Source: Solirubrobacter deserti
Lineage (GTDB): Bacteria > Actinomycetota > Thermoleophilia > Solirubrobacterales > Solirubrobacteraceae
NCBI RefSeq assembly: GCF_027587175.1
Contig: NZ_JAPCID010000011.1
Location: 62,001 to 126,000, forward strand
Length of the DNA stretch: 64,000 bases
Direction of reading: 5' to 3'
Part shown: in pieces, positions 11,467-22,566 of the stretch
How the letters are laid out: every line of letters starts with the position of its first letter
How positions within the stretch are numbered: the first letter of the stretch is position 1
Notes under the pieces: generated by a model
Databases searched by the model: none
Told to the model about the DNA's origin: nothing
What the model saw: the letters and a program-made list of their open reading frames with translations, nothing else
Translations under genes and position numbers: made by a program

Positions 11467-11565
11467 AGCCGGGACTGAGCGGATCGTCGGTCGGGGGCAG
11501 CATCAGGTCATGGATTCTATCTTCACTGCCGATAGATCCGCTACGCTTCGCCACACATAGCTGGA

Positions 11566-11683
11566 CGCATCAAGAGGGGGGGAGGGATTGGCCCTGTGAA
11601 CCCCCGCCAACCTGCTCCCGGTCGCACACCGGGAAGAAGGTGGCAATTCCATCAGGCTCCAACGAGTAGGCCTGGGAGATGCG
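11566..11683 (+). promoter_or_regulatory. SAM-I (S-box) riboswitch aptamer
   Basis: The leader matches the SAM-I consensus closely. P1 is CGCATC (11566-11571) pairing with GATGCG (11678-11683). Between them lie AAGAG, GGAGGGATTGGCCC, GAACCCCCGCCAACC and the conserved AAGGTGGCAATTCC. The aptamer binds S-adenosylmethionine and usually represses methionine-related genes when SAM is high. It lies about 70 bases upstream of the threonine synthase gene. Confidence 0.95.
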
Positions 11684-11717
11684 GTTGGGGTTCTCCCGGT
11701 GCACCTGCCGAAGAAGA

Positions 11718-14259: not shown

Positions 14260-14595
14260 CTAGGCGGCGGCGCCGCGCGGGCGGAAGTCGTCGGCCGAGA
14301 CCAGGTCCAGCGCGAGCGCGTGCTCGAAGCACGTGACGAGCGCCTCCATGCTCTCGGCCACGCAGCGCTCGTAGCCGGCGACGATCTTGGTGCGGTACTC
14401 GGCCTGCAGGCGATCCAGCTCGCGCATGTCCGCGCGGCTGTGCGGCGCCTTCAGCCACGTGTTGCAGTCTGAGCAGCGCAGCTCGACGAGCATCACGTCG
14501 GCCGCCTTCGCCTCGCAGCGCAAGGGCTGCAGGAAGTGGGACCCGCAGCGCGGGCACATGGTCATCGCGGCCACGTCGGCGACGCTATTCGGCAC
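14260..14595 (-). CDS. Small zinc-ribbon protein of unknown function
   Basis: A 111-residue soluble protein. Two Cys pairs (CPRCG at about 14 and CSDC at about 42) form a probable zinc ribbon, followed by a helical region (ELDRLQAEYRTKIVAGYERCVAESMEALVTC). The listed GTG (14595) is uncertain. ATG 14565 or 14559, just before CPRCG, are equally plausible, and none has a strong ribosome site. No function can be assigned. It lies convergent to metF. Confidence 0.55.
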   Translation of the reverse strand: MPNSVADVAAMTMCPRCGSHFLQPLRCEAKAADVMLVELRCSDCNTWLKAPHSRADMRELDRLQAEYRTKIVAGYERCVAESMEALVTCFEHALALDLVSADDFRPRGAAA

Positions 14596-14648: not shown

Positions 14649-14798
14649 ATGGACGCCCCGCAACCCACGCCCGATCCGACGCCGCCGCCGAGCGACGCCG
14701 AGCACCTGGCCGAGCTCACGAAGATGAGCGTGGATTCCTCACGGACCTTCCTGGAGTTCCACTCGGGCGCGCGCTGGTTACGCCGCGACCGCGACTAG
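14649..14798 (+). CDS. Possible 49-residue hypothetical protein
   Basis: A short open frame starting MDAPQPTPDPTPPP, with a Pro-rich start and a helical, charged end (HLAELTKMSVDSSRTFLEF). Its third-position composition is coding-like. It lies between two leftward genes. The ribosome site is weak (AGG only). I recognise no family, and it may be chance. Confidence 0.3.
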   Translation: MDAPQPTPDPTPPPSDAEHLAELTKMSVDSSRTFLEFHSGARWLRRDRD

Positions 14799-14825: not shown

Positions 14826-16700
14826 CTACGGCGCCGTCGTGGACAGCGTGAAGGTCAGCGTCTTGCTGTAGGTGCCCGTGCGCAGCGGATCGGTCTCCTT
14901 GATCAGCTGCTTGAACGTGACGTCGACCTCGTCGTTGGAGACGGGGCCGTCCCACGACGTCTTCTCGAGCTCGACGCGCAGCGGCTCGGGCAGCGTGAAC
15001 GCGCCGTTGCTCAGGTGGCCGGGCGCCGAGACGCTGAGCGTCGCGTTGCCGGCGGTCGAGATGACGTTGGCCATCGTGGACGTCGTGTATTCGCGGGTCA
15101 CGCCCGGGACGAACGTGTTGAAGCTCGGCGTGCCGTTGAGCGTCAGCGACAGCGTCGCGGGCACGGTGCCGGTGACCTCGTTGCCCGGGAAGGTCGAGCT
15201 CAGGAAGAAGTTCGCCGGGGTCAAGCTGGGCTTGCCGGCCGTGCGCAGCCACTGAGTGAAGTAGACGTCCAGCTTGCGGAGGTTGGTGGCGTCGAAGCCG
15301 CCCCGGTCGCGCGCGATCCGCTTGGCCAGCTCGATGAACGCGTCGGTCGTGATCGTGCTGTAGCTGAACTCGTCGATCAGCGCGCGCTGGAAGGCCCAGA
15401 ACGCGGGCTCGCCGACGATCTGGCGGTAGCCCTCGAGCATGGCCGCGGACCGGTTGTAGGTCGGGAAGCTCGGGACGAACATGTTCTCGGGGCCGGGCAG
15501 CGCCGCCGGGATGTACTGCCAGTTCGGCGTTGCGTTCGCGTAGACGTTGGCGAACTGCTGCTGCGTCGTGATGCCGCCGTTCTCCTTGTTGCTCCAGTAC
15601 CAGTTCCACCACGTGGCCCAGCCCTCGTTGAACCACAGCTCGTCCCAGGTCCGCGGACCGATGCTGTCGCCGAACCACTGGTGGGCGATCTCGTGCGCGA
15701 GCGTGCCGTGCGGCACGGGGTTGGGCTGGCTGCTGGAGAAGTGCGACTTCGTCTGGGACTCGAGCGCGTAGTCGAGCTGCGCGTCCGCCGCGACCACGCC
15801 GTGCGACTCGAACGGGTACGGCCGCTGCAGTGCGTCGGCCATGAACTTGATGATGTCGTCCTGACGCTGCGTGCCCGTGTTCGCCGCGGTCTTCTGCTCA
15901 GGGCTGTAGGTGCTCTCGATCGCGTCGTAGAGCTCCAGCGGCGCGCCGCTCTTGCCGATCGCCAGCGGGGAGTTCCACTTCGTGTAGTCGAACTTGCCGA
16001 CGGTGGCGGTCGTCAGGTAGGTCGCCATCGGATAGTCGAGCGACCAGTTCCAGGTCCGCAGCCCGTTCGCGGCGGCCGGCTTGCCGGTCGCGTCGAGCGC
16101 GCCCGTGAGCTCACCGTTGGCGATCGAGATGTAGTCCTCGGGGATCGTGACGTGGTAGTCGTAGGTCGCCTTGTCGGCGGGATGGTTGTTGCTCGGGAAC
16201 CAGCCCATCGCGCCCATCGGCTCGTTGACCACGAACCCGCCGGTGGGGATGCGCGCCCAGCCCTCGGTCGAGTTGTCGGGATCGATGACCTCCAGCGGCG
16301 CGCCCGCGAACTTCACGATCGTCTGGAACACGCGCCCGTTGGCGATTCCGGCCGCGGGGGTGACGACGAGCTTGTCGTCCACGCGGGACGTCGTCGCGGC
16401 GGCACCGTCGATCGTGACCTCGGAGACCGTGTAGGCGCGCAGGTCGAGCGAGAACTCCGACAGGCCCTGCGTGGCCTTCATCGTGATCACGGTCTGCGAG
16501 CCCGGCAGCATCGCGTTGTTCACCGGGTCGTAGTTGAGCGTGACGTCGTAGTGCTGCGCGTCGTAGCCGCCGTTGCCGAGCGCCGGGAGCAGCCGGTCGC
16601 CCAGGCTGCGTGAGCCCGGCGAGAACTGCGCGAGCGCGGGCGTGCTCAGCGCGAGACTCGCCAGCAGCCCTCCGACAATGGCCAAAGGCCGACCCCTCAT
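14826..16700 (-). CDS. Secreted M1-family zinc metallopeptidase
   Basis: A 624-residue exported aminopeptidase-fold protein with a signal peptide (MRGRPLAIVGGLLASLALSTPALAQ). The zinc site is complete: HEIAHQWFGD with His336 and His340, and the third ligand Glu359 in WFNEGWA, exactly the M1 spacing. The exopeptidase motif GAMEN reads ALESQTK, so the N-terminus-binding Glu is kept but the motif is divergent. It should cut peptides outside the cell. ATG 16700 is supported by GGAAGGG; an in-frame start at 16781 would lack a clean signal peptide. A C-terminal beta-sandwich follows the catalytic part. Confidence 0.9.
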   Translation of the reverse strand: MRGRPLAIVGGLLASLALSTPALAQFSPGSRSLGDRLLPALGNGGYDAQHYDVTLNYDPVNNAMLPGSQTVITMKATQGLSEFSLDLRAYTVSEVTIDGAAATTSRVDDKLVVTPAAGIANGRVFQTIVKFAGAPLEVIDPDNSTEGWARIPTGGFVVNEPMGAMGWFPSNNHPADKATYDYHVTIPEDYISIANGELTGALDATGKPAAANGLRTWNWSLDYPMATYLTTATVGKFDYTKWNSPLAIGKSGAPLELYDAIESTYSPEQKTAANTGTQRQDDIIKFMADALQRPYPFESHGVVAADAQLDYALESQTKSHFSSSQPNPVPHGTLAHEIAHQWFGDSIGPRTWDELWFNEGWATWWNWYWSNKENGGITTQQQFANVYANATPNWQYIPAALPGPENMFVPSFPTYNRSAAMLEGYRQIVGEPAFWAFQRALIDEFSYSTITTDAFIELAKRIARDRGGFDATNLRKLDVYFTQWLRTAGKPSLTPANFFLSSTFPGNEVTGTVPATLSLTLNGTPSFNTFVPGVTREYTTSTMANVISTAGNATLSVSAPGHLSNGAFTLPEPLRVELEKTSWDGPVSNDEVDVTFKQLIKETDPLRTGTYSKTLTFTLSTTAP

Positions 16701-16808: not shown

Positions 16809-17459
16809 TCACCCGGGTGGCGGAACCCGGACGTGCAGTTCGGCGACGAGCGCGCGAGGGTCCTGCTCGACGTGGTCGGCGCCGAACTCGAGCGCGGTCG
16901 CGCGCGTGCTCGCCGTCCAGAACTGGCCGCCGGCGACGATCAGCGGGCGCGGGTCGAGCGCCCTGAGCGCGCGGAGCACCTCCGCGACGCCGTCGAGCGC
17001 GCTCGCTGTAGCGGTCGAGAGGGCGACGAGATCCGGCTGCTCGTGTTCCACGAGCGAGACGAGGTCCACCGCCGGGACGCCCTGCCCGAGCAGCATCACC
17101 TCCCAGCCGTCGGCCTCCAGGAAGTCCGCGACCATCCGCGAGCCGACCGCGTGCTGCTCACCGGGCGTGCCGGTGACGATCGCGAGCCGTCCGTCCCGCG
17201 GAGGGCGCTGAAGCCGGCGCGAGAGGCCGTCGAGGATCGACTGCACCACGGCGGTCGCGTAGTGCTCCTCGGCGACGTTGATCTCGCCCATCGCCCACTT
17301 GTGCCCGACCTCGCGCAGGGCCGGGGCGAGCACGTCGAGGTAGAGGTCCGGAACCGGCGTGCCGTTGTCCAGCGCGGCCTCCACCGCCCGCCGCGCGCGC
17401 GCGGAATCACGAGCCAGCACGGCGTCAAGGAAGTTGGCGCGATGCTCGTCCAGGCTCAC
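16809..17459 (-). CDS. Stand-alone cobalamin-binding protein, CarH/MetH-type cap plus B12 domain
   Basis: A 216-residue cytoplasmic protein with two parts. Residues 1-85 form a four-helix cap like that of methionine synthase and CarH. Residues 90-216 form a Rossmann B12 domain with GEQHAVG (cobalt-ligand His103), LSTATASAL and IVAGGQFW. Trp55-x9-Glu65-His66 matches the Wx9EH motif of light-sensing CarH and LitR proteins. It lacks their MerR-type DNA-binding domain. No methyltransferase is nearby. The GTG at 17459 lacks a ribosome site, and TTATAT lies 10 bases upstream. The likely role is a B12 sensor or photosensor acting through another protein. Confidence 0.82.
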   Translation of the reverse strand: MSLDEHRANFLDAVLARDSARARRAVEAALDNGTPVPDLYLDVLAPALREVGHKWAMGEINVAEEHYATAVVQSILDGLSRRLQRPPRDGRLAIVTGTPGEQHAVGSRMVADFLEADGWEVMLLGQGVPAVDLVSLVEHEQPDLVALSTATASALDGVAEVLRALRALDPRPLIVAGGQFWTASTRATALEFGADHVEQDPRALVAELHVRVPPPG

Positions 17460-17734
17460 CGCGCCCGGAATATAACCCTGGACTTCCGACGGGTGGCGGT
17501 ACAAAGCCCGGAGGCGTAACGTCAAAAAACATGACGCCGCCGCCTCAGCACGACAAGGAGCCGAAGGCCGCGCCGCTCGAGAACGCCGACGCCGCGCGGC
17601 ACCTCCAGCATCTCGGCATGGACGCGAACGCCGCAAAGACCTCGCGGCCTACCACTCCGGGTTGTACGCCGCGTTCAGACCGCGTTAGGGATTCCCCTGA
17701 TGCGCCGGGAGGCTTGCGGGCGCAGCATGACGGC

Positions 17735-21393: not shown

Positions 21394-22566
21394 ATGGAGA
21401 GTGCGTCCCATCTCCAGCGGATCAGCTGCCACTGCGCGGCGATCGCCCGCCGCATGGACCTCGACGACGAGCTGATCGGCGCCGCCAGCCGCCTGCACGA
21501 CGTCGGCATGAACGGCGTCGCCGACCGCCCGCTCCCGCTCACCGGCCCGGAGCGCCAGGCGCTCGAGCAGCACCCCGAGACCGGGCACGCGATGCTCGCC
21601 GGCTCTGGCCAGCCGGCGTTCGAGCTCGCGGCCGAGATCGCCCTCACCCATCACGAGCGCTATGACGGCCAGGGCTACCCGCGCAGGCTGCACGCGGAGG
21701 AGATCCCGCTGGCGGGCCGGATCGCGGCCGTCGCGGACGCGTTCGACGCCCTCACGACCGACCGCGTGTACCGGCCCGCGGGGACGGTCGAGCACGCCGT
21801 CGCCGCGCTCCGAACCGAGCGCGGCGGCCAATTCGACCCGACCGTCCTCGACGCGTTCATCGACTGCCTCGACGCCGCCGTCGCCGCACTCGAGCGCCAC
21901 CCCCCCGAGCCGCCGGTCGCGCCGCTCGACGAGACGTTCCTGACGCTGCAGGCCGCGGCCGAGGCGCTGCGCATCAACCCGAGCCGACTGCGCCGGTGGT
22001 CGGACGAGGGCCGCATCGAGACCCAGCGCACGCTGGGCGGCCACCGCCGCTTCCCGCTCGCGGCCGTGCGCCGGCTCGCGGACGAGATCGGCGTCCAGCC
22101 GGTCGTGCGCCCGATCGACCCGCCCGACGACCCGGTGCTCGCGCTCGCCGAGACGCTGCGCACGCACGGGCCCAGGCTCGCCGCCGCGGCAAGCGCCTCC
22201 ATCTACCGCGACGGCCCGCGCGGCTGGTTCGCGAGCAGCGACGCCGAGATCGTGATCGGCGAGTGGATCGACACCCTCGCCGAGTGCTGCGCCCGGGGCC
22301 GCTACCTCGCGGCCGGGACGGCCTCCGAGGGCCTGATGCGCTACGCCCACGTGCACGCGGCGTCGCTGCTCGAGCGCCACCTGTTCCTGGAGCGCTTCGC
22401 GCAGCTCACGCTGCGCGTGATCGTCCGGGGGGAGCGCTCGCGCGAGGAGATCAGCCAGGCGCGGCAGGTGTTCAGCGCCATCCAGCAGCACCTGCTCGAC
22501 GTGACGCGCCCGACAGGATTCGAACCTGTGACCTCGCGCTCCGGAGGCGCGCGCTCTATCCACTGA
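21394..22566 (+). CDS. HD-GYP phosphodiesterase-type protein with MerR/excisionase-type helix-turn-helix
   Basis: A 390-residue protein. HD-GYP domain at 1-165, with LHDVGM (the HD pair), HHERYDGQGYP (the GYP motif) and DAFDALTTDRVYR. This family hydrolyses c-di-GMP. The Lys usual in HDxGK is Met here. At about 185-235 lies an excisionase/MerR-type DNA-binding motif (SRLRRWSDEGRIETQ, GGHRRF), then a helical region. The protein begins directly at the HD fold, and a TAA immediately upstream blocks any earlier in-frame start. The last 20 or so codons are antisense to tRNA-Arg. It could be a c-di-GMP-linked DNA-binding regulator. Confidence 0.78.
   Translation: MESASHLQRISCHCAAIARRMDLDDELIGAASRLHDVGMNGVADRPLPLTGPERQALEQHPETGHAMLAGSGQPAFELAAEIALTHHERYDGQGYPRRLHAEEIPLAGRIAAVADAFDALTTDRVYRPAGTVEHAVAALRTERGGQFDPTVLDAFIDCLDAAVAALERHPPEPPVAPLDETFLTLQAAAEALRINPSRLRRWSDEGRIETQRTLGGHRRFPLAAVRRLADEIGVQPVVRPIDPPDDPVLALAETLRTHGPRLAAAASASIYRDGPRGWFASSDAEIVIGEWIDTLAECCARGRYLAAGTASEGLMRYAHVHAASLLERHLFLERFAQLTLRVIVRGERSREEISQARQVFSAIQQHLLDVTRPTGFEPVTSRSGGARSIH

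What the first reader, a model, noticed from the sequence alone, without database searches (positions are those of the whole stretch)
16809..17459. Stand-alone B12 domain with the CarH photoreceptor motif but no DNA-binding domain
Seen: Trp55-x9-Glu65-His66 in the cap domain and a B12 His103, exactly the CarH/LitR arrangement, in a 216-residue protein that starts at the cap. Known: in CarH this motif surrounds the adenosyl group that light removes. No methyltransferase or corrinoid-enzyme partner is near. Inference: a B12 light or cobalamin sensor that works by protein contact.
Basis: partly seen in the sequence, partly recalled or inferred. Interest (0 to 1): 0.6.

Follow-up and report, generated by a model that had tools for sequence, protein, structure and literature searches.

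The report
Stand-alone B12 sensor, probably light-responsive
A soil bacterium carries a small free-standing vitamin-B12 protein with the parts that known B12 light sensors use to hold their light-breakable cofactor, but with no DNA-binding part, so it probably signals by touching other proteins; two tiny unknown proteins sit beside it.

Summary
Observation confirmed: window 16809-17459 (-) encodes a 216-residue B12-binding protein with Trp55-x9-Glu65-His66 and His103 and no other domain. All four motifs of the published light-responsive B12-domain signature are present. 'Exactly CarH' is too strong: CarH His132, which captures cobalt after illumination, is Ala56 here; CarH Arg176/Asp201 are Gln102/Gly127. 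The CarH H132A mutant photolyses adenosylcobalamin but stays mostly tetrameric, so a CarH-style monomerising switch is unlikely.

It is not a recently stripped CarH: it lies in a separate, mostly stand-alone clade and is conserved in 6 of 6 Solirubrobacter genomes. In the sister clade 6 of 8 genes sit in operon with SpoIIE phosphatases, some with RsbW-like or STAS genes, which supports signalling by protein contact. Solirubrobacter has no such adjacent partner; instead two homologous ~50-residue proteins flank the cassette in all six genomes and occur nowhere else in 100 family genomes searched (the window's divergent copy is frameshifted).

Best reading: an adenosylcobalamin/light sensor acting through protein contact, a new variant of a known kind. 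Cofactor, light response and partner are inferred, not shown.

The parts
16809..17459 (-). Stand-alone B12-binding protein (216 aa, P0001): four-helix cap domain plus Rossmann B12 domain
   Evidence: orthologue in 6 of 6 Solirubrobacter genomes
17262..17297 (-). Codons of residues 55-66, WAMGEINVAEEH (Wx9EH cap motif); Ala56 stands at the CarH His132 position
   Evidence: 0 of 22 aligned sequences have His at that position
17151..17162 (-). Codons of residues 100-103, GEQH; His103 is the predicted lower axial cobalt ligand
17073..17087 (-). Codons of residues 125-129, GQGVP (GxxxP signature)
   Evidence: signature from PMC11796333
17460..17530 (.). 71-bp divergent intergenic region; TATATT at 17469-17474 (- strand), 9 bases before the GTG, suggests a leaderless transcript; AGAAGTCC-like block conserved
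   Evidence: the sigma-70 consensus scan found nothing
17531..17689 (+). Small ORF A (52-61 aa in relatives), divergent from the B12 gene; in the window its frame is broken by one missing base
   Evidence: codon-position bias in three intact copies
14649..14798 (+). Small ORF B (49 aa, predicted helical), homologue of ORF A on the far side of the cassette
14826..16700 (-). M1-family peptidase with an apparent signal peptide, next gene downstream (in L043 and L044 a GNAT acetyltransferase gene sits here instead, overlapping by 4 bp or 5 bp away)
14260..14595 (-). About 100-aa Cys-rich (MCPRCG) protein beyond ORF B, kept beside the cassette in 6 of 6 species; no Pfam match

Best explanation
A free-standing adenosylcobalamin sensor. 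The helical cap closes over the adenosyl group with Trp55, Glu65 and His66, and His103 ligates cobalt from below (inferred from homology). Blue/green light, or loss of adenosylcobalamin, would remove the adenosyl group and change the cap/Rossmann arrangement. With Ala56 in place of His132 the light state should be a water- or hydroxo-cobalamin form rather than bis-His, and the change should be small, more like CtMerR or photocobilins than the CarH tetramer-to-monomer collapse. Having no output domain, it must act by touching another protein. In its sister clade that protein is probably a SpoIIE-type PP2C phosphatase of a partner-switching (RsbW/STAS) circuit; in Solirubrobacter the partner is unknown, and the two flanking ~50-residue proteins are the best positional candidates. 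Shown: motifs, domains, conservation, gene context. Inferred: cofactor, light response, contact mechanism, partner.
For: All four light-responsive signature motifs present; PMC11796333 reports that exemplar proteins with this signature were experimentally light-responsive (abstract and sections 8, 9, 11, 12). Best solved relatives by sequence are the CtMerR B12 domain, photocobilins and CarH, ahead of methyltransferase corrinoid proteins; the family profile agrees, though there one corrinoid protein (7xcn) ties with CarH. The predicted fold aligns over nearly its full length with photocobilin 8j2w (Z 20.1), CtMerR 8jbs (18.7) and CarH 5c8d (17.1) (model pLDDT 71). One orthologue in each of 6 of 6 Solirubrobacter genomes. 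Tree: clade of 23 (93/83) separate from 13 MerR-fused rows (100/99). SpoIIE in operon in 6 of 8 of the sister clade. Own genome encodes a cobalamin adenosyltransferase.
Against: Light response rests on a sequence signature alone. CarH H132A, which has the residue found here naturally, shows minimal structural change on illumination and stays mostly tetrameric (PMC10442372 passages), so light might do little. No same-strand gene within 60 bp in the window or in 3 of the other 5 Solirubrobacter loci. Small ORF A, the nearest candidate partner, has a broken frame in the window.
Confidence: 0.55

Rival explanations
1. A sensor of adenosylcobalamin level rather than of light: the cap recognises the adenosyl group, and binding or loss of the cofactor, not photolysis, is the signal, for example tied to B12-dependent methionine or propionate metabolism.
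For: His132 is absent (0 of 22 aligned sequences have His; 1 of 55 signature domains among the called loci); a metF gene lies within 10 kb in 6 of 6 Solirubrobacter loci, in the window with a SAM riboswitch upstream of its gene group; own genome has MetH, further B12-binding matches of mutase type (type judged from frame length and recalled family features) and an adenosyltransferase.
Against: Photocobilins and CtMerR lack His132 and still photoreact (PMC11796333 section 11). The synteny with metF is non-specific: genes on the other side are largely kept too, and 4 and 2 genes intervene in L042 and L043.
Confidence: 0.2
2. The B12 half of a split CarH: it docks on a separate HTH protein encoded elsewhere and controls its DNA binding, as AerR does with CrtJ.
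For: In G009 (L058) a relative sits divergently next to a stand-alone MerR gene. AerR precedent (PMC5362033 abstract).
Against: No HTH gene directly adjoins it in the Solirubrobacter loci; among the 22 aligned sequences I saw one adjacent MerR gene (L058) and, by eye, one adjacent ArsR-like gene (L059).
Confidence: 0.12
3. A corrinoid carrier for methyl transfer (MtaC/MtbC type) or a cobalamin storage or chaperone protein.
For: Same two-domain fold as corrinoid proteins (3ezx Z 17.6); NCBIfam gives sub-threshold matches to MtgC and MtbC.
Against: Best NCBIfam match is CarH, itself far below cut-off (77 of 400 bits); Glu-x-His instead of the Asp-x-His typical of methyl carriers (recalled); invariant Wx9EH; no methyltransferase gene nearby.
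Confidence: 0.08

Closest known systems
Light-responsive cobalamin-binding domains defined by SignatureFinder (PMC11796333), e.g. CtMerR 8jbs
   Same: GxxW, EH, GxxH and GxxxP all present; non-His residue after the Trp, as in CtMerR (Arg)
   Different: CtMerR carries an N-terminal DNA-binding domain; this protein has none
Stand-alone photocobilin SasPcob (8j2w)
   Same: No output domain; B12 domain similar (Z 20.1, 29% identity); proposed to act by protein contact, with predicted STAS/SpoIIE links (PMC10979010 section 9)
   Different: No bilin-binding globin-like domain: 216 aa against 339
CarH/LitR (5c8d)
   Same: B12-domain fold and the Wx9EH plus ExHxxG core
   Different: No MerR domain; His132, Arg176 and Asp201 replaced by Ala56, Gln102 and Gly127
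AerR (7te2)
   Same: Stand-alone B12 protein, known to act by binding a regulator (CrtJ)
   Different: Distant: 16% identity, Z 16.5
SpoIIE-linked stand-alone B12 proteins of the same family of bacteria (L051-L053, L055-L057, seen here)
   Same: Same protein family (39-47% identity), same length, same cap motif
   Different: They have SpoIIE phosphatase operon partners; the Solirubrobacter orthologues do not

Membership tests
CarH/LitR | Wx9EH cap motif | tested here: met
CarH/LitR | ExHx2Gx41SxV/Tx22-27GG | tested here: inconclusive
   all but the V/T position (Ala150)
CarH/LitR | N-terminal MerR-type DNA-binding domain | tested here: not met
   conserved GTG start
CarH/LitR | His132 (bis-His light state) | tested here: not met
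   Ala56; numbering and role from PMC10442372
CarH/LitR | Curated family score (NCBIfam NF052513) | tested here: not met
   77.3 bits against cut-off 400
Light-responsive B12 domain (SignatureFinder signature) | GxxW, EH, GxxH, GxxxP | tested here: met
Light-responsive B12 domain (SignatureFinder signature) | Spectral change on 530-nm light | not testable with these tools
   needs purified protein
Photocobilin | Bilin-binding globin-like domain | tested here: not met
   216 aa, both B12 domains fill it, no further domain
AerR | Stand-alone B12 domain that binds a CrtJ/PpsR regulator | not tested
   a CrtJ homologue was not searched for in this genome
Corrinoid methyltransfer protein | Methyltransferase partner gene nearby | tested here: not met
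   neighbour genes; partners elsewhere in the genome not searched

The most novel reading that the evidence does not exclude
Solirubrobacter uses a DNA-binding-free, bilin-free B12 photoreceptor whose output is a genus-specific pair of ~50-residue helical proteins encoded on either side of it: light or cofactor loss changes which small protein it holds, a new kind of photoreceptor output.
Probability: 0.15. Interest if true: 0.65.

Novelty: new variant of a known kind. Interest (0 to 1): 0.42.

Why it matters
If the light response holds, B12 light sensing in soil actinobacteria reaches beyond CarH and photocobilins to free-standing domains, some apparently wired to SpoIIE partner-switching circuits. 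The natural H132A-like pocket makes a specific question testable: can a B12 photoreceptor signal without the bis-His switch? The flanking small proteins are concrete partner candidates.

Tried and rejected
Partner by operon in the window: rejected; the next gene (M1 peptidase with an apparent signal peptide) starts about 110 bp away and is replaced by GNAT in two species.

metF partnership: considered; synteny is shared by the whole region, and metF is separated by 4 and 2 genes in L042 and L043.

Recent loss of a MerR domain from CarH: not supported by the tree; at least two other Solirubrobacter genomes (G012, G080; L118, L117) hold a signature-bearing MerR-type protein as well.

RHH DNA-binding extension in L048-L050: suspected by eye; neither Pfam nor PDB sequences support it; left unexplained.

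Anti-phage role: PADLOC gave nothing. Promoter consensus scan: no sigma-70 site. Pfam on the small ORFs: nothing significant. PDB search with the unknown 128-aa neighbour in L052: nothing.

The four-sequence AlphaFold model is only moderate (pLDDT 71), so the geometry of the pocket was not argued from it.

Literature searches (open-licence papers only) turned up no paper on a B12-domain photoreceptor of Solirubrobacter.

One search was this report in a wrong format and was not accepted.

Full report
WHAT IS THERE. The reading frame 16809-17459 (-) encodes 216 residues with a B12-binding_2 cap and a B12-binding Rossmann domain and nothing else. The GTG start is supported by a conserved GTG and an upstream TATATT/TATGCT box in orthologues.

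HOW CARH-LIKE IT IS. The light-responsive signature published in PMC11796333 (GxxW, EH, GxxH, GxxxP; abstract and sections 8, 9, 11 and 12 read) is fully met. In an alignment of 22 sequences, 7 of its 8 residues are among 17 invariant columns. But CarH His132 is Ala56; 0 of the 22 have His there, and 1 of 55 signature-bearing domains in the loci whose genes I called does (62 loci called, 6 without a called B12 domain, one further locus, L010, dropped as a duplicate of L061; the loci were chosen by similarity, so this is a biased sample). From the alignment to the PDB sequences and residue numbers in PMC10442372 (passages read), CarH Arg176 and Asp201 correspond to Gln102 and Gly127, while Gly192 is kept as Gly118. 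The CarH H132A mutant photolyses adenosylcobalamin to a hydroxylated cobalt(III) form but mostly stays tetrameric; an earlier report of its disassembly is disputed there. So the cofactor pocket is CarH-like, but the CarH switch is not expected to operate unchanged. CtMerR (Arg), SasPcob (Gln) and AbDPcob (Tyr) also lack this His and still photoreact. The Wx9EH and ExHxxG definitions of CarH were checked in PMC8156234 (passages).

STRUCTURE. By sequence the best solved relatives are 8jbs, photocobilins 8j2y/8j2w/8j2x and CarH. With the family profile the same groups lead, but the trimethylamine corrinoid protein 7xcn scores level with CarH. An AlphaFold model (pLDDT 71, four sequences) aligns with photocobilin 8j2w (Z 20.1), CtMerR (18.7), a monomethylamine corrinoid protein (17.6), CarH (17.1) and AerR (16.5). 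The fold alone therefore does not separate sensor from carrier; the motifs do.

FAMILY AND TREE. One orthologue (63-82% identity) occurs in each of the 5 other Solirubrobacter genomes held. In the wider family, 43 of 100 genomes have some match at 1e-10. A tree of 69 B12 domains places this protein in a clade of 23 (93/83) apart from 13 MerR-fused proteins (100/99) (MerR assigned by a sequence pattern in the same script). Two other Solirubrobacter genomes (G012, G080) also carry a signature-bearing MerR-type protein (L118, L117), so the stand-alone form is a separate lineage rather than a stripped CarH. In the window genome only MetH and this gene match B12-binding_2 (draft of 428 contigs).

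CONTEXT OF RELATIVES. In the 8-row sister clade, 6 (L051, L052, L053, L055, L056, L057) have a SpoIIE phosphatase gene on the same strand within 60 bp; 2 (L054, L059) do not (Pfam-confirmed for L053, L055, L056; the others by a local profile). L051 and L053 add an RsbW-like ATPase gene beside the B12 gene, and L056 and L057 a STAS gene (the 60-bp script did not score the STAS genes as next neighbours). Across the phylum sample (26 of 296 genomes with a match at 1e-38; 20 regions fetched), five B12 proteins of 353-368 aa, the length of photocobilins (bilin domain not tested), also adjoin SpoIIE genes (L187, L188, L191, L196, L197). PMC10979010 already predicted links of a stand-alone photocobilin to SpoIIE and STAS (section 9). 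This makes protein-contact signalling the best guess for the family, though not proof for the window protein.

CONTEXT IN SOLIRUBROBACTER. The kept order is small ORF A (divergent) - B12 gene - M1 peptidase or GNAT - small ORF B (opposite strand) - Cys-rich gene, in 6 of 6 loci. The gap between ORF A and the B12 gene is 69-75 bp in five loci and 279 bp in L044. GNAT replaces M1 in L043 (4-bp overlap with the B12 gene) and L044. ORFs A and B are homologous (17.7-43.7 bits of each B against the A profile). A profile of both finds 12 copies in the 6 genomes, all at these two sites; weaker matches elsewhere start at E 0.04, and none is found in the other 94 family genomes at 0.001. Three intact A copies show third-position-biased differences (summed over three pairs: 29, 19 and 58 at positions 1, 2, 3), so it is probably a real gene. 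In the window one base is missing and the frame shifts, either a true loss or a draft error. AlphaFold gives ORF B three short helices (pLDDT 76). Their exclusive place beside the B12 cassette makes them the best positional partners, but the ORF A break in the window argues against an essential role there, and conserved order within one genus is weak evidence of a functional tie.

MECHANISM. Shown: motifs, domains, conservation, contexts. Inferred: adenosylcobalamin binding (the genome encodes an adenosyltransferase), photolysis, and output by contact. The main rival is a cofactor-level sensor; a metF gene group with a SAM riboswitch upstream lies near, but the synteny is non-specific. AerR shows that a stand-alone B12 protein can work by binding a regulator (PMC5362033, abstract), and a short-LOV/MerR pair shows a stand-alone photoreceptor controlling a separate DNA-binding protein (PMC9758184, passages).

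VERDICT. A real, conserved, stand-alone B12 sensor-type protein; a new variant of a known kind. Light sensing is likely but untested, and the CarH-type oligomer switch is unlikely.

Noticed in passing
L048 8802-8981, L049, L050: Three relatives carry a 50-60 residue N-terminal extension that looks by eye like a ribbon-helix-helix DNA-binding domain; in L048 a urease gamma/beta gene follows directly (Pfam), and genes of the same cluster follow in L049 and L050. Pfam and PDB sequence searches do not support the RHH guess.
   Followed up: partly
L108, L111, L112, L113: Another group of stand-alone signature B12 proteins lies directly upstream of a MacB/FtsX permease gene (Pfam on L108, local profile on the others), followed by what looks like an ABC ATPase gene, in 4 of 4 loci viewed: possibly a B12- or light-linked transporter.
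   Followed up: partly
L052, L099, L103, L106: ABM-type monooxygenase domains recur beside or fused to signature B12 proteins (adjacent gene in L052, L099, L106; fused in L103); an unknown 128-144 aa protein without a Pfam match recurs in L052, L103, L106.
   Followed up: partly
L051 10670-11473, L052 11763-12785, L053 7697-8584: A second, degenerate B12-like domain without Wx9EH is encoded close to each of these SpoIIE-linked B12 proteins; perhaps a cofactor-free partner.
   Followed up: no
window 11564-11685: SAM riboswitch upstream of a PLP-enzyme (threonine-synthase-like) gene, a MoaD/ThiS-like frame (no family search run on it) and metF: a probable SAM-controlled methionine gene group.
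   Followed up: partly
window 21454-22566: HD_5 domain fused to a MerR-like/HTH_17 domain, an unusual-looking combination.
   Followed up: no
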